Below, piece by piece: positions 2,442 to 14,721 of a stretch of 15,884 bases of DNA. The DNA comes from Chrysochromulina parva (taxonomy: Eukaryota > Haptophyta > Prymnesiales > Chrysochromulinaceae). The position numbers and the translations under genes are program-made. The DNA lies in assembly GCA_002887195.1 (NCBI GenBank), contig PJAB01001264.1:1-15884 (forward strand), in the 5' to 3' direction. The notes under the pieces are model-generated. The model had not been told where the DNA came from. It saw only the letters and a program-made list of their open reading frames with translations, and did no database searches. How positions within the stretch are numbered: the stretch's first letter is position 1; every line of letters begins with the position of its first letter.

Positions 2442-4269
2442 TCAGCCAACAGCTGCAGCAGGCCGCTGCATGATGGTACCCCATGCTTCGCTGCTTTGCG
2501 AGGCTCTTTGAAGCCGAACGGCCTCACCCCGAGCGGAGTCCACCTCAACGACCGCCACGAACATGCTCGCCACCTGGGGGTCGGTCAAGTATACGAGGTT
2601 GGGGCGTTCGGCCGCCTCGGAGACACGCAACACCTCAAAGCGCACCGCGCGCGGCACGCGGCGCTGGGCGGCCAGCGCGTAGTGCGAGAACGTCGTGCGC
2701 GCATTGAGCTCGAGGATCTTGACCTGTGGGGAAAGGGGAGGACGCGCCGTGGTGAGCACTTGCATGCGCGCATTGAGCTCGAGAATCTTGACCTGCAGCG
2801 CGCCAAGATCAAGGGCAATCAAGGGCAATCAAGGGCAATCAAGGGCAATCAAGAGCTCGAGGATCTTGACCTGCAGCGCGCCAAGATCAAGGGCAATCAA
2901 GGGCAATCAAGGGCAATCAAGGGCAATCAAGGGCAATCAAGGGCAATCAAGGGCAATCAAGGGCAATCAAGGGAGATCGCACCTGCAGCGCGCCAGTCGT
3001 GTGATCTCGAACCACAGCGACGTCGAGCCCGCATGTGGGCACCCCGCACGTGCCTGTGACGAACCACGAGTCGATGTGACGAAACTTGTCGATGTGACGA
3101 ACCACGAGTCGAGGTGACGAGCCCGCATGTGCCTCGATGACATGCGGCAGGTCATCGCTGTGGTTCGTCTCGAGCCCGCATGTGCCTGGCAATCCGTGGC
3201 CATCAGAGGCCATCAGTGGCCCGCACGTGCCTGGCACGTCGAGGGGCGCGAGTGCTGCTTCGATTTGTCGCTCCTCGAAGACGAAACGGACCACCTCCGA
3301 CGAGTATCGCTCTGCGGGTGAGCCCAGCCATTGGCCCATCCATCGGCGGTGCTCGACGATGGGCATCGAGATGCCGCACCTGAGGAGAGCAGACGCCCAA
3401 CATGACGCGGGCGATCGGACGCGAAGAGAGGTCATCAGAGGCCCTCAGAGGCCATCAGAGGCCATCAGAGGCCATCAGAGGCCATCAGAGGCCATCAGAG
3501 GCCATCAGTGTCCCCATCAACGCCGATGCTCATTGTAACGGCTCCTCAGCCAGCGTCATGTTGGGAAAGGCGCACCGCACCAGTCAAGTCAAGTCAAGTC
3601 ATGTCATGTTGGGAAAGGCGCACCGCACCAGGACCCTTCCCAATACTCCGCTGTGAACTCGGCGACTATGTCTAGCCACGGCTCGACGAGCAACGCGCCG
3701 TCGCGGGCGATGCAGTTCGCCGCCCAGCGCGCCAGCTCAGAGCCCTCCGCTGCAATCGGGGTCGCGCCGTCCTGGGCGCCTTCGCACACGCGCACGCCCA
3801 GACCAGAGGAGGAAAACTCGGCCTTGAGTACCGCGCGCTCGTCGGGCTGCTCCGCCACGGCTGCACGCACTGCCTCCACCGAGTGGCATACGACGCCGTG
3901 CTCACGATAGCGCCCGACGAGCGAGCGGCGCAGGTGAGGGCCCACGACGCCGTACGGACGGTGGCCTGTGATCGGCACAGAGGACGGCAGCTGCTCCAAG
4001 CTCGCACAAAACTGGCACATGCCGCTCACCCCAGCGGCCTGCAGGGCGGCGAGGAAGTCTGGGAGTGGCGGCGGCGCGATCACGAGGTCGGCCTCGGTCG
4101 CAAGGAGCCACGGTAACACCGCAAGGTCGCGACGGAGCGCCTGGAAGGATTTTGGGACAGCGCGCCCGGCCGCCTCCGCCTCGACGCCCACATTGCATGT
4201 GTATACCCACGCACCCGCGGTAGCGGGAATGGAGCCCTCGGCGGAAGTGGAGCCCTCGTCAGGTGCCAT
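2442..4269 (-). CDS. ATP-grasp ligase-like protein, four exons
   Basis: Proposed exons, in transcript order: 4269-3635, 3379-3231, 3053-2983, 2723-2442. Spliced length is 1137 nt, 378 residues plus TGA, with all phases matching. Residues 21-110 look like a pre-ATP-grasp domain (WVYTCNVGVE; DLVIAPPPLPDFLAALQAAGV). VLKAEFSSSGLG (147-158) fits the ATP-binding glycine-rich loop. EPWLDIVAEF (196-205) and ELNAR (290-294, E and N as Mg ligands) are typical of ATP-grasp enzymes, which form amide or peptide bonds through acyl-phosphates. The C terminus carries YLTDP and FVAVVEV. The substrate is unknown. The family is mainly bacterial, so transfer is plausible. The start is uncertain: ATG at 4269 is the first in-frame Met, but the frame stays open to 4413 and a TTTTCACAG acceptor near 4375 could join an upstream exon. 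The middle intron needs a GC donor, so exon 3 edges are less sure. Confidence 0.68.
2696..2898 (-). repeat. Three copies of an ATP-grasp exon boundary
   Basis: The sequence encoding VKILEL(NAR) occurs at the true exon (2723 downward) and again at 2792 and 2870 inside the intron. Copies 2696-2726 and 2765-2795 match over 31 nt with one mismatch (ATC/ATT). Copies 2775-2820 and 2853-2898 match over 46 nt with the same single mismatch, and include GGCGCGCTGCAG, which is the end of the upstream exon. The intron therefore contains uninterrupted exon-exon junctions. Confidence 0.93.
2724..2767 (-). mobile_element. Introner-like element, copy A
   Basis: Read on the minus strand, the 44 nt from 2767 to 2724 start GCATGCAAGTGCTCACC and end CTTTCCCCACAG, forming the 3' end of the intron. 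The first 24 nt are identical to, and the rest closely match, the 3' end of the second ThrRS intron (13841-13881). It is flanked by direct copies of exon sequence (31 nt, one mismatch). That matches the behaviour expected of introners. No terminal inverted repeats or coding capacity were seen. Confidence 0.55.
2811..2978. repeat. 10-bp minisatellite AAGGGCAATC in two blocks
   Basis: Four exact copies of AAGGGCAATC occupy 2811-2850 and eight exact copies 2889-2968, followed by a variant AAGGGAGATC (2969-2978). The blocks are separated by a copy of the exon junction (2853-2888). The array lies wholly within intron 3 of the ATP-grasp gene. Confidence 0.97.
3023..3234. repeat. Dispersed copies of the exon 2/3 junction of the ATP-grasp gene
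   Basis: A motif close to GAGCCCGCAYGTGCC occurs at 3025-3037 (exon 3), 3041-3056, 3119-3133, 3172-3186 and 3219-3232 (exon 2 edge). In the gene's orientation it reads GGCAYGTGCGGGCTC and encodes GTCGL. The spacers also repeat GACGAACCACGAGTCGA (near 3058 and 3097). Confidence 0.75.
3054..3230 (-). other. Intron 2 of the ATP-grasp gene, probable GC-AG type
   Basis: Exon 2 ends CCAG at 3231; the intron would start GCACGTGC and end GTCACAG at 3054, and exon 3 again starts GCACGTGCGGGG. Only this pairing keeps the frame (phase 1), giving DVPG-TCGVPTCGLDVAVV. No GT donor gives a good fit. Several copies of the junction sequence lie inside the intron, so the exact boundary is ambiguous by one repeat unit. 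Confidence 0.5.
3431..3510. repeat. 10-bp minisatellite GCCATCAGAG
   Basis: Eight tandem units from 3431 to 3510; the first two and the last carry single-base variants. It sits inside intron 1 of the ATP-grasp gene. One and a half similar units recur in intron 2 (about 3199-3220), showing movement or common origin of the unit between introns. Confidence 0.95.
3583..3608. repeat. Short TCAAG/TCATG pentanucleotide repeat
   Basis: GTCAAGTCAAGTCAAGTCATG followed by TCATG forms about five 5-bp units between the two copies of the 25-nt segment in intron 1 of the ATP-grasp gene. Confidence 0.85.
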
Positions 4270-4662: not shown

Positions 4663-6225
4663 TCATCCCACCTCACGAGCACCGCTTGCCTCACACGCTG
4701 CTTGCCACTGCTTGACCTCATCTGCGTGATGATCTTCCACTGCTTCAGTTCCTCGAGGCAAGCGTTGGCAAGTACCACTGTCCCGGCATGCTTGCCACCT
4801 ACTCGCCTCGGTCTGGGCTGCGAGCGCGCTCTTCCCCCCCTCGCGCGCTCTGACCTCGCTTGGAGAGATCAAATGATCCGGCGGTGCACAACGAAACGGC
4901 GATCCACCCAGCGGGCAAAATCCCTTGCCCCCGAGAGAATAGAGAGGTGGCGCTTGACCGAGACGTGCCACCATGCGCAGCATGATGAGCTCAGTGATGC
5001 CGGCGGTCAGGTCCCCTACAAGGGCCGTGCAGCGGCTAGCCGCCTCGATGTCCGTGATCGCGTCGACAATTGGAGTGAAGTTTGCCCGGGACGGCGTTCC
5101 TTGCTGCTGGTCCTGTTGGCGCTGCTGCAGCTTGTGCTCCACCCAGTCATACTGGTCGAACCTGCTCACGTTGCTGTTATTCCTCTCCACTGCCAGCCAT
5201 GAGCGATCTATGCGCTGGTGGAGCACTTCGACCCATGGCTCTGGCACCATGGCTCCGGCACGATGCTCGCGAGCCTGACCGGTGGAAAGGGGGGGAGTCC
5301 CCTTACCGGTGGAAAGGGGGGAAGTCCCCTTACCGGTGGCGACGAGTTCGTCCACAACGGACTGCTCGTCGGTGGCGATGAACAGTCGCCGTAGGCCGTA
5401 CCGTCGCGCGAGATGGCGCGCGGGTACCAGATATTCCTCGAGGGGCGGGCAGCGTCTCCATGGCGTAATGCATGCGTCGCCGCGGCGCACGTGCACTGCG
5501 ACACACGACCACTCAGCAGCGCCGCCACGAAAAATCTCTTTCAGCCGCGCATCGACCAATGAGCGTAGAGCCTCCGACGGACGCCACCACACGTCGAGGA
5601 GCGCAGCTCCGAGTACTAGGCTGCCCCATCGATCCTCAAAGGTGCTCCGATATCGCTCGCGCCAGTACTGAACTCTCTCGTTGATTGTGGTGGTGCGGGA
5701 GTCGTTGTGCACCAAACGCACCGGAAGTTTCAGATTGGTCCACAGGGCGTACGCTCTAGTCGAGTTCGCACTCGAATTTGAATTTGCACACACGGTGTGC
5801 AGATGCTGCCAGTAGCATCCGTACCAGGTGCGGCATTCAAGCGAAGTGTCAGCGGCTGCCCACAACAACCTATCGCTCGATTCTTCTGTCCAAACGGCGG
5901 GCATTACGGCCGGGCCGCGCCCATCTGCATCCTTGGGTACTATCCACACTGGGAGCAGTGAGTTCAAATGTGCGATAATCGTGGTTCCCAACCCGCGCAT
6001 GGTCCAAGGCACGCGGTACCATCGAGATGCTTCACATCCAAGCTGCCGCGACCAGATTGATGAGGCCAGAAGCGCGTCTTGGTCATGGCGCCACGGTGCA
6101 GGGCGCGGTGTAATTTGCGAGGACGCAGGCAAGTAGCACGAGCACACGCGAACGTTCGACTTGTTGAGTCCGGATTCGGGGCATCTGTCAACCACCCAGC
6201 CGACGCGCTCGCGCATCGTGGTCAT
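4663..6225 (-). CDS. GT23/fucosyltransferase-like glycosyltransferase
   Basis: A single open frame of 520 residues. CVAVHVRRGD (241-250) and LFIATDEQSVVDE (281-293) match the donor-binding motifs of alpha-1,6-fucosyltransferases (FUT8/NodZ, GT23) and the wider GT-B fucosyltransferase group. DIEAASRCTALVGDLTAGITELI (392-413, here split by function: acidic D-I, then S-x-C, then VG) matches their C-terminal GDP-fucose region. RGLGTTIIAHLNSLLPVWIV (77-96) fits the N-terminal 'G-G-x-x' glycan-binding strand. Such enzymes transfer fucose from GDP-fucose to N-glycans in the Golgi. Two nearby Met codons (6225, 6216) follow an in-frame stop at 6238-6240. No signal anchor is visible, so a 5' exon may be missing or the protein may lie outside the Golgi. 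An in-frame 9-residue duplication (298-315) sits in a loop. The acceptor is unknown; a POFUT-like enzyme is the alternative. Confidence 0.72.
   Translation of the reverse strand: MTTMRERVGWVVDRCPESGLNKSNVRVCSCYLPASSQITPRPAPWRHDQDALLASSIWSRQLGCEASRWYRVPWTMRGLGTTIIAHLNSLLPVWIVPKDADGRGPAVMPAVWTEESSDRLLWAAADTSLECRTWYGCYWQHLHTVCANSNSSANSTRAYALWTNLKLPVRLVHNDSRTTTINERVQYWRERYRSTFEDRWGSLVLGAALLDVWWRPSEALRSLVDARLKEIFRGGAAEWSCVAVHVRRGDACITPWRRCPPLEEYLVPARHLARRYGLRRLFIATDEQSVVDELVATGKGTSPLSTGKGTPPLSTGQAREHRAGAMVPEPWVEVLHQRIDRSWLAVERNNSNVSRFDQYDWVEHKLQQRQQDQQQGTPSRANFTPIVDAITDIEAASRCTALVGDLTAGITELIMLRMVARLGQAPPLYSLGGKGFCPLGGSPFRCAPPDHLISPSEVRAREGGKSALAAQTEASRWQACRDSGTCQRLPRGTEAVEDHHADEVKQWQAACEASGAREVG
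5278..5338. repeat. 27-bp tandem repeat within the glycosyltransferase CDS
   Basis: Two full 27-bp copies (5278-5304 and 5305-5331) plus an 8-bp partial copy starting ACCGGTGG. In the gene they encode TGKGTSPLS and TGKGTPPLS. The length is a multiple of three, so the frame is preserved; the near-identity of the copies suggests a recent duplication. Confidence 0.93.
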
Positions 6226-12246: not shown

Positions 12247-14721
12247 ATGGTGGCACGATGGGCTCGAGCTTTGCGCACCGTGTCAATCGCCTCGCTGGTG
12301 GCGGCGTATCAGCCAAGCGGGGCTCCCGCTGCATCGCGGCTCGCCGCCGCGCGGCAGATCGTCGCGCGCCGCCTTCATGCGAGCTCTGTCGTCATGCAAG
12401 CCGTGGAGACGCCTGAGGCCACCGCTGACGTGCCCGCGCTTATCGAGGCGGTGAAGCCCATGGTCCTGCCGAGCAATGAGGAGAGCGACACGCTGCTGCG
12501 CATCCGGCACACGAGCGCGCACGTGATGGCCATGGCCGTGCAGCGCCTCTTCAAGGATGCCAAGGTGACCATCGGCCCGTGGATCGAGAATGGCTTCTAC
12601 TACGACTTCGACTACAAGGAGGCCTTCCTCGAGACCGACCTGCGGCGCATCAAGAAGGAGATGGACAAGATCATCTCGATGAAGCTGCCGCTCGTGCGCG
12701 AGGAGGTCTCCGCCGACGAGGCACGCCGGCGCATCTTGGAAATCAACGAGCCATACAAGCTTGAGATTCTCGACTCGATCGTGGCTCGCGACCCGACGGC
12801 ACTGATCACGATCTACCACATCGGCGACGAGAACTCAAAGACGAAGTGGTGGGATCTGTGCGCGGGCCCGCACGTCGCGCATACGGGCATGCTCCCCGCG
12901 GACGCCATCTCTCTCGACTCGATCGCGGGCGCGTACTGGCGCGGCGACGAGACCAAACCCATGCTGCAGCGCATCTACGGATCGGCCTGGGAGAATAAGG
13001 AGCAGCTCGCAGAGTACGCGCGGCTGCAGGCGGAGGCGAAGCGGCGTGACCACCGCATGCTGGGCAAGCAGCTCGACCTCTTCTCGATTCAGCAGGACGC
13101 GGGCGGCGGCCTTGTCTTTTGGCACCCCAAGGGTGCGCGCATGCGCAACGCCATCGAGACGTTCTGGAAGGATGTGCACATCAACGGCCCCAAGCCGTAC
13201 GAGCTGCTGTACACGCCCCACATGGCGTCGCTGGACCTGTGGAAGACGAGCGGCCACTTCGACTTCTACAAGGACGGAATGTTCGACCAGGTGAGCGTAC
13301 CCTCTGCTGCAGCCCGCGGTGCAACCCGCTGCGGGCCACCATACTGGCCGCCTAACTGGCCGCCTAACTGGCCGCCGTGCTGGCCGCCGTGCAGGCCCCT
13401 TCTATATGCCCACGAGCCCGCCGACCCCCCCTCTCTTCTGACCTTCTGACCCCGTGCGTGCTCGCCCTGCGTCGTCCCGGGCGCCCACTACGGCGCGCAC
13501 AGATGGAGGTCGAGGGCGCGGAGTACCAGATTCGACCGATGAACTGCCCCTTCCACGTGCTCGTCTACAAGGACAGCCCGCGCTCGTACCGCGACCTCCC
13601 CTTGCGATGGGCCGAGCTCGGGACTGTCTACCGGTACGAGCGCTCGGGCACGCTGCACGGCCTCTTCCGCGTGCGGGGCTTCACGCAGGACGACGCTCAC
13701 ATCTTCTGCCTGCCCGAGCAACTCTCTGACGAGATCCTCGGAGTGCTCGACCTGACGGAGACCATCCTTTCCAAATTTGGGTTCACCGACTACAAGGTGA
13801 TGCTCTCGACGCGCCCTGCTGCTCGGCGCGCTCGTCCTCGGCATGCAAGTGCTCACCACGGCGCCCTCCTCTTCCCCACAGGTGATGCTCTCCACACGCC
13901 CGGAGAAGAGCGTCGGCTCCGATGCCATCTGGGACAAGGCCACGACCGCGCTCACGGACGCCCTCGACCGGAAGGGTTGGACGTACGACGTGGACGAGGG
14001 CGGCGGCGCCTTTTACGGCCCGAAGATCGACGTCAAGATTCGCGACGCCATCGGACGGATGTGGCAGTGCTCGACGATCCAGTGCGACTTCAACCTACCC
14101 GACCGTTTCGGACTCGAGTACATCGCCTCCTCGGGCAAGGTGGAGCAACCGATCATGGTGCACCGCGCGATCTTTGGCTCGATGGAGCGCTTCTTCGGAG
14201 TACTGACCGAGTCGACCGCGGGTGACTTCCCATTCTGGCTCGCACCCACGCAGCTGCGCCTGCTGCCCGTGTCGGATGACTTCAAGCCCTATTGCGAGGA
14301 GGTGGTGAAGGCGTGCAAGCGCGCGGGCGTGCGCGCTGAGGTCGACATTGGCGGCCGCTCGCTCGGCAAGCAGATCAAGATTTCAAACCAAGAGAAGATC
14401 CCCATGTACGCGGTCGTCGGCGCCGCAGAGGTCGAGGGTCGCTCCCTCGCACTCACTTCGAGGCGAGGAGGCGACCTGGGCTCGTTGCCCCTCGCTGTCG
14501 CCATCGAGCGGATGGCAGTCGCGCACGAGACGAACATCGAGCCGCACGAGGTGGGCGCGGGCGCTGTCTCCTCTGCCACCGCTGCCGCGCCCGCCGCCGC
14601 CGCTGCTGCTGCTGCTCATGCTCCCGCAACGGCTGCGGAGCTTGCGCGACAGGCAGCGGCTGCGGCGAGGGCTGCCGCGGTCAGCGCGAGGGAAGCGGCG
14701 GCCAAGGCGCGCGCCGAGTGA
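12247..14721 (+). CDS. thrS: Threonyl-tRNA synthetase, organellar (cyanobacterial-type), three exons
   Basis: Exons 12247-13290, 13503-13796 and 13882-14721 give 725 residues; both junctions are phase 0 and restore [18 protein letters not shown] and [14 protein letters not shown]. The enzyme charges tRNA-Thr. The editing domain is intact (HTSAH 88-92; WDLCAGPH 202-209). Class II motif 2 includes [17 protein letters not shown]. The Zn ligands C363, H414 and H540 have the same 51- and 126-residue spacing as E. coli C334, H385 and H511. The N-terminal TGS domain is absent, as in cyanobacterial and plastid enzymes; instead the first about 55 residues ([20 protein letters not shown], then Arg/Ala-rich) look like an organelle presequence, probably plastid and perhaps also mitochondrial. 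A C-terminal extension of about 50 residues after VGAGAVSS is almost pure Ala/Arg/Glu and probably helical. ATG 12247 is the first in-frame Met. Confidence 0.93.
13291..13502 (+). other. Intron 1 of the ThrRS gene
   Basis: Donor GTGAGCG after GACCAG and acceptor GCGCACAG before ATGGAGGTC; 212 nt. The protein alignment to the ThrRS family is continuous across it (MFDQ-MEVE). It contains a 12-bp tandem repeat and a pyrimidine-rich tract near 13430. Confidence 0.9.
13344..13391. repeat. 12-bp tandem repeat in ThrRS intron 1
   Basis: Four units: CTGGCCGCCTAA twice, then CTGGCCGCCGTG twice. The pairwise arrangement suggests one unit mutated and each variant was then duplicated. Confidence 0.93.
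13797..13881 (+). other. Intron 2 of the ThrRS gene, created next to a duplicated exon start
   Basis: 85 nt, donor GTGATGCT after TACAAG, acceptor CTTCCCCACAG. The first 20 nt of the intron copy the first 20 nt of the following exon (2 mismatches), so the donor GT is a former Val codon. Retention would shift the frame, since 85 is not a multiple of three. Confidence 0.92.
13841..13881 (+). mobile_element. Introner-like element, copy B
   Basis: The 41-nt 3' half of ThrRS intron 2 begins GCATGCAAGTGCTCACC and ends CTCTTCCCCACAG. Its first 24 nt are identical to the end of ATP-grasp intron 3 (2767 downward), and the pyrimidine tract and acceptor are also alike. As in copy A, it is bracketed by direct copies of the downstream exon's start (13795-13816 and 13880-13901). 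Two unrelated genes sharing intron sequence argues for a dispersed family. Confidence 0.55.

What the first reader, a model, noticed from the sequence alone, without database searches (positions are those of the whole stretch)
2724..2795. Introner-like element shared by introns of two unrelated genes
The 3' end of ATP-grasp intron 3 (2767-2724, minus) and of ThrRS intron 2 (13841-13881, plus) share 24 identical nt at the start, then a similar C/T tract ending CCCCACAG. The genes are unrelated and on opposite strands, so this cannot be homologous exon or gene duplication. In both, a copy of the downstream exon start sits directly upstream of the element. That is the signature reported for introners in algae such as Micromonas and Aureococcus: insertion with target duplication that supplies a splice site. 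The duplicated targets here (31 and 22 nt) are much longer than typical transposon-type target site duplications, so the mechanism may differ.
Basis: partly seen in the sequence, partly recalled or inferred. Interest (0 to 1): 0.86.

Follow-up and report, generated by a model that had tools for sequence, protein, structure and literature searches.

The report
Tiny introns spreading with long duplications
A very short piece of intron has been copied into well over a thousand places in an alga's genome, usually duplicating a stretch of the gene it enters so that the insertion can be spliced out as a new intron, which bears on how genomes gain introns in bulk.

Summary
The 24-nt sequence shared by the two genes belongs to a family with 408 exact and 1,829 near copies of its first 21 nt (0 and 1 control hits) in this 45-Mb genome, a haptophyte practically identical to Chrysochromulina parva in the one gene compared. 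Of 142 copies read, 106 are flanked by a duplicated target, typically 17-40 nt (cross-pairing control 1-2%). In the main class the duplication supplies the 5' splice site and the insert supplies branch site, pyrimidine tract and AG (82 of 142 splice-ready; 62 with the duplication). In a small class the insert carries GT and the duplication supplies AG. Insertion length is free modulo 3 in splice-capable copies (29 of 89 divisible) but mostly in frame in the others (19 of 28), as expected if only the first are spliced. Two genes show filled and apparently empty sites in environmental proteins. Copies in one gene resemble each other. This is an introner family of unusual architecture: no inverted repeats, variable ends, long variable duplications. 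The copying machinery is unknown.

The parts
12247..13290 (+). ThrRS exon 1
   Evidence: Spliced model of 725 aa aligns to ThrRS chain 1qf6_A over residues 66-657
13291..13502 (+). ThrRS intron 1 (no copy of the core found at up to 4 mismatches)
   Evidence: Splicing restores FDQ|MEVEG, also uninterrupted in P0001; core scan
13503..13796 (+). ThrRS exon 2
13797..13881 (+). ThrRS intron 2: introner-derived intron, 85 nt
   Evidence: Not a multiple of 3; removal restores [21 protein letters not shown], aligned without a gap to 1qf6_A; frame uninterrupted in P0001
13797..13816 (+). left copy of the duplicated target; supplies the 5' splice site GT
   Evidence: D17
13817..13840 (+). 5' extension of the insert, not duplicated
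13841..13864 (+). 24-nt core; probable branch site TGCTCAC with A at 13855 (motif reading recalled, not from a call)
   Evidence: 408 exact and 1,829 near copies of its first 21 nt in the genome; 1,007 copies of the 24-mer with up to 1 mismatch
13865..13881 (+). pyrimidine tract and 3' splice site CCCCACAG
13882..14721 (+). ThrRS exon 3; 13882-13901 is the right copy of the duplicated target
2724..2767 (-). core (2767-2744) plus pyrimidine tail and CCCCACAG (2743-2724)
2768..2792 (-). left copy of the duplicated target (starts GTCAAGATT)
2699..2723 (-). right copy of the duplicated target = exon start (GTCAAGATCC)
2793..2804 (-). copy of the upstream end GGCGCGCTGCAG, ending in AG
2805..2852 (-). 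10-nt repeat array (TTGATTGCCC)
2853..2870 (-). third copy of the exon start, truncated
2871..2882 (-). copy of the upstream end GGCGCGCTGCAG
2883..2982 (-). older intron: GTGCGATCTCCC plus a 10-nt repeat array
2983..2994 (-). upstream end GGCGCGCTGCAG (taken as the original copy)

Best explanation
The finding is one family of introners, intron-making mobile sequences, in a Chrysochromulina. SHOWN in the copies read: the shared unit is a 24-nt core holding the probable branch site, in 98 of 142 copies followed by a pyrimidine tail (mostly 16-25 nt) ending in YAG. It has been inserted at many unrelated places, mostly with a duplication of roughly 10-50 nt of the target. When the duplicated target starts with GT, the left copy can serve as 5' splice site and the insert supplies branch site and AG, so an intron of about 77 nt arises and the reading frame is kept. 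In a small class the insert keeps its own GT end and the duplicated target supplies AG. Insertions without a usable splice signal are mostly in frame. SHOWN statistically: copies on one contig tend to be each other's relatives. INFERRED: a new copy is made by copying part of an existing intron, often a neighbour's, into a broken or nicked target. Annealing of a few matching bases would start the copying, and re-synthesis of the target between two distant nicks or template jumps would leave the long duplication. Whether the template is intron RNA (reverse transcription) or intron DNA (template switching, end joining) is open. Selection for splicing would then fix the spacing from 5' splice site to core at about 34 nt.
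For: Family: 408 exact and 1,829 near copies against 0 and 1 control hits. Duplication: score 13 or more in 106 of 142 copies; 14 or more in 100 of 142 against 0.87% of 1,500 cross-contig pairings; GT-anchored in 62 of 82 splice-ready copies against 0.19% of 1,594 pairings. Splicing, indirect: removing five insertions from one gene gives one 517-aa frame with a TLDc domain (E 3.5e-26), identical by eye to a C. parva gene model but for 10 aa at the fifth junction (P0121); ThrRS as above. Frame test: 29 of 89 splice-capable copies divisible by 3 against 19 of 28 others (Fisher P = 0.0017); 18 of 21 after removing seven array copies, 17 of 20 if L048, which by eye has splice signals, is also taken out. 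Filled and empty sites: P0124-P0126 read uninterrupted through the site of introners 1/2 of the TLDc gene but run into introner 3, P0126 being listed with a 54,864-base contig; P0141/P0142 read through introner 1 of a Sec1-like gene, P0143 runs into it. Spacing: GT to core 34.4 +/- 7.1 nt; duplication against 5' extension Spearman -0.70 (n = 59 of 62). Local descent: nearest relative on the same contig for 16 of 67 copies, 1.0 expected; 0 of 2,000 shuffles reach the observed similarity; without C1413 still 1.210 against 1.060. No terminal inverted repeat in a composite element (2 of 12 positions). A 5'-truncated copy without GCATGCAA beside an intact one (L068).
Against: 36 of 142 copies show no clear duplication; some look decayed by eye, others are not explained. 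The sample is biased to good matches (97 of 142 exact). No RNA reads were seen; transcript evidence is indirect. P0126's DNA was not seen, only its listed contig length; the other apparently empty alleles lie on contigs (2,048-6,546 bases) that could be partly spliced transcripts. For most copies read the insert's 5' end lies near GCATGC, more regular than free copying predicts, though this is partly a result of how copies were searched. In the frame test some copies are not independent (two L052 copies form one array; two lie in L085), the seven-copy removal was done after seeing the data, three copies break the rule (L040, L097, L106), and two in-frame ones (L016 at 909, L063) have no open frame across them. 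The microhomology argument is thin: 6 of 21 copies against a 4.6% background for CGC. No copying enzyme was sought.
Confidence: 0.62

Rival explanations
1. Target-primed reverse transcription: a LINE-type or other reverse transcriptase copies excised or nascent intron RNA into nicked DNA. Variable target duplications and 5' truncation are expected; locality would come from nascent transcripts.
For: Duplications of variable length, regular 3' end and variable 5' end in the main class; the base before the intron is G in 50 of 62 copies, matching the intron's AG end.
Against: The small second class has the 5' half but ends just after the core, which needs priming inside the RNA. Three exonic copies lie antisense to the best long frame by a crude measure (L050, 666 codons; two in L052, 505 codons), which a purely nascent-RNA model does not predict. 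No poly-A or fixed 3' tail seen.
Confidence: 0.27
2. Non-autonomous DNA transposon (MITE-like introner) moved by a transposase, as in Micromonas and Aureococcus.
For: Insertion with target duplication and splice-site co-option; dispersed copies, some in both orientations to the reading frame.
Against: No terminal inverted repeats in the composite; duplication length varies from about 10 to 50 nt, while transposases cut with a fixed stagger (recalled); both insert ends vary; gene-specific subfamilies.
Confidence: 0.06
3. Plain tandem duplication of exon segments holding AGGT, with the core merely a strongly conserved branch-site motif.
For: Duplicated exon segments with AG|GT borders; direct repeats of this spacing without the core also occur (13 in 75,904 bases of 20 sampled stretches plus the window, against 0 in one shuffled control; 2 with core; several are simple arrays).
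Against: The inserted core is not part of the duplicated exon and is absent from the apparently empty alleles. It also sits in unspliceable, mostly in-frame copies, where a branch site has no use. Similarity covers 24 nt, more than a branch site needs (recalled).
Confidence: 0.04
4. Assembly artefact: collapsed or mis-joined repeats imitate insertions.
For: Tandem arrays exist (for example C94, C333).
Against: Independent environmental proteins read through the same junctions, core included (P0124-P0127, P0141-P0143), and the mod-3 contrast has no evident technical cause.
Confidence: 0.01

Closest known systems
Introners as defined by Gozashti et al. 2022 (PMC9860276; abstract, Results and two Methods sections read, passages of others)
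   Same: Many similar intron-making insertions in coding sequence; target duplication in part of the families; splice site co-opted from the duplication (either side); aquatic alga.
   Different: There, similarity is required to reach near both splice sites, duplications cited are 3-9 bp, and inverted repeats are common (72 of 177 families), though families without either are known. Here only the 3' part or the middle is shared, duplications are about 10-50 nt, and no inverted repeats were found.
Chrysochromulina sp. introner family 5, TARA MAG (PMC9860276, Fig. 2C legend)
   Same: Same genus label; carries its 5' splice site and takes the 3' one from the target, as our smaller class does.
   Different: 4-bp duplication reported; sequences not compared (none is held here).
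Introner elements of Amoebophrya (PMC7789003, passages)
   Same: Intron-borne repeats with direct repeats at the exon borders.
   Different: Direct repeats of 3-5 nt, inverted repeats of 8-20 nt, non-canonical splice sites.
Tandem genomic duplication of AGGT segments (review PMC3443670, passages)
   Same: A duplicated exon stretch provides splice sites.
   Different: No shared inserted element; not a repeat family.
Stwintrons of Hypoxylaceae and Xylariaceae (PMC12403724, passages)
   Same: Sequence-similar introns spread to new sites.
   Different: No target duplication and no splice-site co-option reported there.

Membership tests
Introner (broad sense: repeat family that creates spliceosomal introns) | Many similar copies in introns of unrelated genes | tested here: met
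   1,829 near copies; 82 of 142 copies read have tail and YAG|GT
Introner (broad sense: repeat family that creates spliceosomal introns) | Insertion creates the intron; empty sites exist | tested here: met
   P0126, listed contig 54,864 bases; P0141/P0142 against P0143, contig type unknown for these
Introner (broad sense: repeat family that creates spliceosomal introns) | Copies are spliced out | tested here: inconclusive
   Indirect: restored frames, mod-3 contrast, P0001 and P0122 uninterrupted; no RNA reads available
Introner (strict pipeline of PMC9860276) | Similarity extends to near both splice boundaries | tested here: not met
   In the main class the first ~34 nt of the intron are largely target-derived and differ between copies
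DNA-transposon introner (Micromonas/Aureococcus type) | Short, fixed target duplication (3-9 bp) | tested here: not met
   10-45 nt from GT in 62 copies
DNA-transposon introner (Micromonas/Aureococcus type) | Terminal inverted repeats | tested here: not met
   2 of 12 end positions complementary in a composite element
DNA-transposon introner (Micromonas/Aureococcus type) | Insertion in nucleosome linkers | not tested
   No chromatin data
LINE/SINE-type retroelement | Target duplications of variable length and 5' truncation | tested here: met
   Variable length; variable 5' end and one truncated copy:
LINE/SINE-type retroelement | Constant 3' end (tail) | tested here: not met
   Two kinds of 3' end: AG, or just after the core
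LINE/SINE-type retroelement | Partner reverse transcriptase | not tested
   Not searched
Fungal introner-like elements | Stable RNA fold | tested here: not met
   Six sequences, z-scores -0.51 to 0.52

The most novel reading that the evidence does not exclude
Introns of this alga multiply without any transposon of their own. A generic host process (microhomology-primed template switching or RNA-templated repair) copies a piece of an existing intron into a nearby exon and duplicates 10-50 nt of target. Splicing then acts as the filter that lets these insertions survive, so the family's spread and its intron size are products of selection on a mutation process. A 10-nt-repeat intron type in the same genome may spread in the same way.
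Probability: 0.4. Interest if true: 0.92.

Novelty: new variant of a known kind. Interest (0 to 1): 0.82.

Why it matters
How introns arise in bulk is a long-standing question, and most known introner families are taken to be DNA transposons (PMC9860276). This family does not fit that: ends vary, duplications are long and variable, and donors often seem to be in the same gene. It offers a natural experiment, since spliceable copies are free in length modulo 3 while unspliceable ones are mostly in frame, and filled and apparently empty alleles occur in nature, so the mechanism can be tested directly. Screens that require similarity near both splice sites could miss such families.

Tried and rejected
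Transfer by viruses: the exact 21-mer is in one IMG/VR contig in that scan (L127), within its last 60 bases and after 10-nt repeats of the algal kind, on an otherwise phage-like contig; read as a likely chimera. The tool warns that records of this genome may be left out. Relatives in prokaryote genomes: 12 stretches with an 18-mer, none with the GCATGC part; read as chance. RNA structure: none beyond shuffles. Rfam on the window: nothing at gathering thresholds. 18S identification: the search gave no answer twice, so the organism was named from proteins. Pfam on the ATP-grasp model: no match at E up to 1, but that model joined two stretches by guess. The first null for duplications was spoiled by neighbouring copies and replaced. 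The first frame count was 16 of 23, then 19 of 28 with more copies. The 18 of 21 figure drops seven copies after inspection, because their duplication contains CACAGGT or pieces of the second class's 5' half; it still holds L048, which by eye is spliceable (17 of 20 without it). Three type-A rows with a gap of 40 nt or more were dropped, and two with short left flanks from its open-frame count. An early automatic class count (49 A, 6 B, 51 unassigned) was too strict and was not used. Published parallels were sought. Only CC-licensed papers are held and no supplements could be read, so a listing of this species in the tables of PMC9860276 cannot be excluded.
Full report
What was checked. The two stretches share 24 identical nt (2744-2767 minus, 13841-13864 plus) and each follows a copy of the downstream exon start. 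The window is a whole contig (C1264, 15,884 bases) of a 45,074,565-base assembly in 2,199 contigs.

Family size. GCATGCAAGTGCTCACCACGG occurs 408 times exactly (reversed-pattern control 0) and 1,829 times with up to 3 mismatches (control 1). The 24-mer with up to one mismatch occurs 1,007 times (control 0), and its last 16 nt 689 times (control 1). A 30-nt 5' half that goes with the second class (GTACGTTGATTGCC...) occurs 114 times with up to 3 mismatches (control 0). Where these copies lie in genes is known only for those read.

Organism. The gene with five copies on C1413, spliced as predicted, equals a protein of the JGI Chrysochromulina_OHIO_Genome (label Chrpa1) except for 10 extra residues at the fifth junction (P0121, 98% over 100%; compared by eye). 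I read Chrpa1 as C. parva (recalled). For ThrRS the best listed hit with a species name is Prymnesium parvum at 71% (120 rows listed). The assembly is therefore C. parva or something very near it; this rests on one gene.

Structure of the copies. I read 142 distinct copies in the loci at hand (97 exact; the sample favours good matches). In 106 the left and right flanks share a gap-free duplication of score 13 or more. At 14 or more it is 100 of 142, against 0.87% of 1,500 pairings between contigs (2.3% at 12 or more). Lengths have median 27 (10th-90th percentile 17-40, range 13-68). In 98 of 142 the core is followed by a pyrimidine-rich tail ending YAG, in 82 of them directly before GT. In 62 of these 82 the exon start is found again upstream starting with GT (0.19% in 1,594 control pairings). 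These introns are 57-138 nt long, 59 of 62 being 95 nt or less, median 77. A second class has GTACGTTGATT... before the core and a duplication ending in AG, so the target supplies the 3' splice site (six rows: L034, L035, L040, L043, L082, L105). The insert ends are not fixed: 5' extensions are 0-34 nt in 59 of 62 copies, and one copy lacks GCATGCAA beside an intact one (L068). Of the 20 stretches then fetched for 16-mer matches outside the exact 21-mer set, many still show a GCATGC-like start and a flanking duplication.

Evidence of splicing. ThrRS: removing 13291-13502 and 13797-13881 gives 725 aa that align to ThrRS chain 1qf6_A (E 2.8e-152) through both junctions. P0001, an uninterrupted 724-aa frame on a contig listed at 2,535 bases, matches it with two substitutions and one alanine fewer, by eye. 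The TLDc gene: five insertions removed give one frame of 517 aa with Pfam TLD at 3.5e-26. Of 60 joined flanks, 54 are open in at least one frame; in GC-rich DNA this is weak alone.

The frame test. Taking 172 copies (16-mer-only copies included), 117 have a duplication and no second core inside it. Those with a usable splice signal (89) have insertion lengths 29/30/30 for remainders 0/1/2. Those without (28) have 19/6/3 (binomial P = 0.0002; Fisher against the first group P = 0.0017). Removing seven copies that belong to arrays of spliced or second-class units leaves 18 of 21, a step taken after seeing the data. L048, still among the 18, has splice signals by eye (17 of 20 without it). The exceptions are L040 (68), L097 (46) and L106 (65). 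Some copies are not independent (two in one L052 array, two in L085). Of the 19 in-frame copies, 17 are open across; L016 at 909 and L063 are not. Three lie antisense to the best long frame by a crude base-composition measure (L050, 666 codons; two copies in L052, 505 codons). So insertion seems not to be limited to sites that can splice, and selection seems to remove the frame-breaking ones unless they are spliced.

Filled and empty sites. Three proteins (P0124-P0126) read ...HHADGYAGPTLLLVLTDAAEVFG..., without introners 1 and 2 of the TLDc gene, and then run into the translated core of introner 3. P0126 is listed with a 54,864-base contig, too long for a transcript; its DNA was not seen. In the Sec1-like gene on C82, P0141 and P0142 pass the site of introner 1 and end in introner 2, while P0143 ends in introner 1. 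For these three the contigs (2,488-3,988 bases) could be transcripts, so this second case is weaker.

Spacing. The distance from GT to the core is 34.4 +/- 7.1 nt. Duplication length and 5' extension compensate (Spearman -0.70, n = 59, three rows with gap 40 or more dropped; variance of the sum 51 against 144 if independent). I infer that the splicing machinery sets this distance. The long duplication itself does not come from that selection alone, because unspliceable copies have it too (16-68 nt).

Local descent. Among 113 copies with a tail, pairs on one contig (53, tandem pairs removed) are more alike in tail and adjacent 10 nt than pairs overall (1.258 against 1.057 on a scale to 2; 0 of 2,000 shuffles; without C1413 1.210 against 1.060). 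The nearest relative is on the same contig for 16 of 67 copies (1.0 expected), so for 51 it is not. Clear gene-specific sets are C1413, C970 (L025), C55 (L156, L157) and C82. In C970 all four copies carry CCCCTCG(C/T) before the core. One of them carries ACTCGCCTCCCCTC upstream and another its first 12 nt; the same 14 nt stand in the exon beside the copy at 172 (read by eye), as if a piece of the donor's target had travelled along.

Mechanism. Variable ends, variable long duplications, no inverted repeats in a composite, no special fold in six sequences and local donors speak against a transposase and for copying. In 6 of 21 unspliceable copies the target itself begins CGC where the insert continues CGC (background 4.6%), which hints at microhomology. 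RNA or DNA as template is undecided; no enzyme was searched for.

In the window. The minus-strand intron is layered: an older intron 2883-2982 bounded by a 12-nt duplication GGCGCGCTGCAG; a further array with a third exon copy (2805-2870); and finally the core insertion (2724-2792). Its 69-nt unit is in frame and open, so it may be spliced, used as an alternative 3' site, or translated; this is not decided.

Literature. PMC9860276 (abstract, Results, Methods on TSDs and on Fig. 2 examples, passages): duplications of 3-9 bp cited for earlier families, similarity required near both splice sites, a Chrysochromulina MAG family with 4-bp duplications. PMC7789003 (passages): direct repeats of 3-5 nt. 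PMC3443670 (passages): the tandem-duplication model. PMC12403724 (passages): no duplications in stwintrons. PMC4580454 (passages): C. tobin has on average one intron per gene. Two held papers contain both introner and Chrysochromulina, PMC9860276 and PMC4815162 (the latter seen only in the listing), and three contain both introner and target site duplication. The Micromonas/Aureococcus transposon model is recalled and seen through passages of PMC12403724 and PMC7789003.

Verdict. A real, large introner family with an unusual insertion signature: a new variant of a known kind. That it is an introner family I hold at about 0.93; the copying model at about 0.6 with its RNA and DNA forms together.

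Noticed in passing
window 2805-2982 (minus); also L125 from 2126, L112 from 1037, L118 from 2092: A second intron type built of 10-nt repeats (TTGATTGCCC and variants, some ending TGATTGCCTCCCTCATCAG) also sits between duplicated flanks; L125 has a perfect 27-nt duplication around a 52-nt array. It may spread in the same way.
   Followed up: partly
window 3555-3631: A perfect 29-nt direct duplication separated by a 19-nt insert (tcaagtcaagtcaagtcat), with no core, near the first copy.
   Followed up: partly
P0127 (TLDc gene relative): A reading frame that joins introner 1 directly to the exon after introner 3: either a deletion between two introners by recombination or an exon-skipping transcript.
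   Followed up: no
P0121 against spliced model of C1413: The C. parva gene model includes 10 residues of the left target copy at introner 5, while P0122 does not; probably a mis-annotated splice site, or imprecise splicing.
   Followed up: no
L127 4300-4554: A phage-like IMG/VR contig ends in algal-type repeats and an introner copy; looks like a chimeric contig end.
   Followed up: partly
L060 and L081 (C82, C184): A tail variant ending CCTAATTAG instead of CCCCACAG, shared by two copies in one gene and by one in another.
   Followed up: no
window 5274-5337 (minus gene 4663-6225): A 27-nt tandem repeat inside a 520-aa frame gives a repeated STGKGTxPL peptide.
   Followed up: no
C184:2984-9680: Seven exact 16-mer cores lie within 7 kb of one contig on one strand. 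The flank of a further, degenerate copy in L081 reads like a myosin motor domain (recalled), so this may be one gene with many introners.
   Followed up: partly
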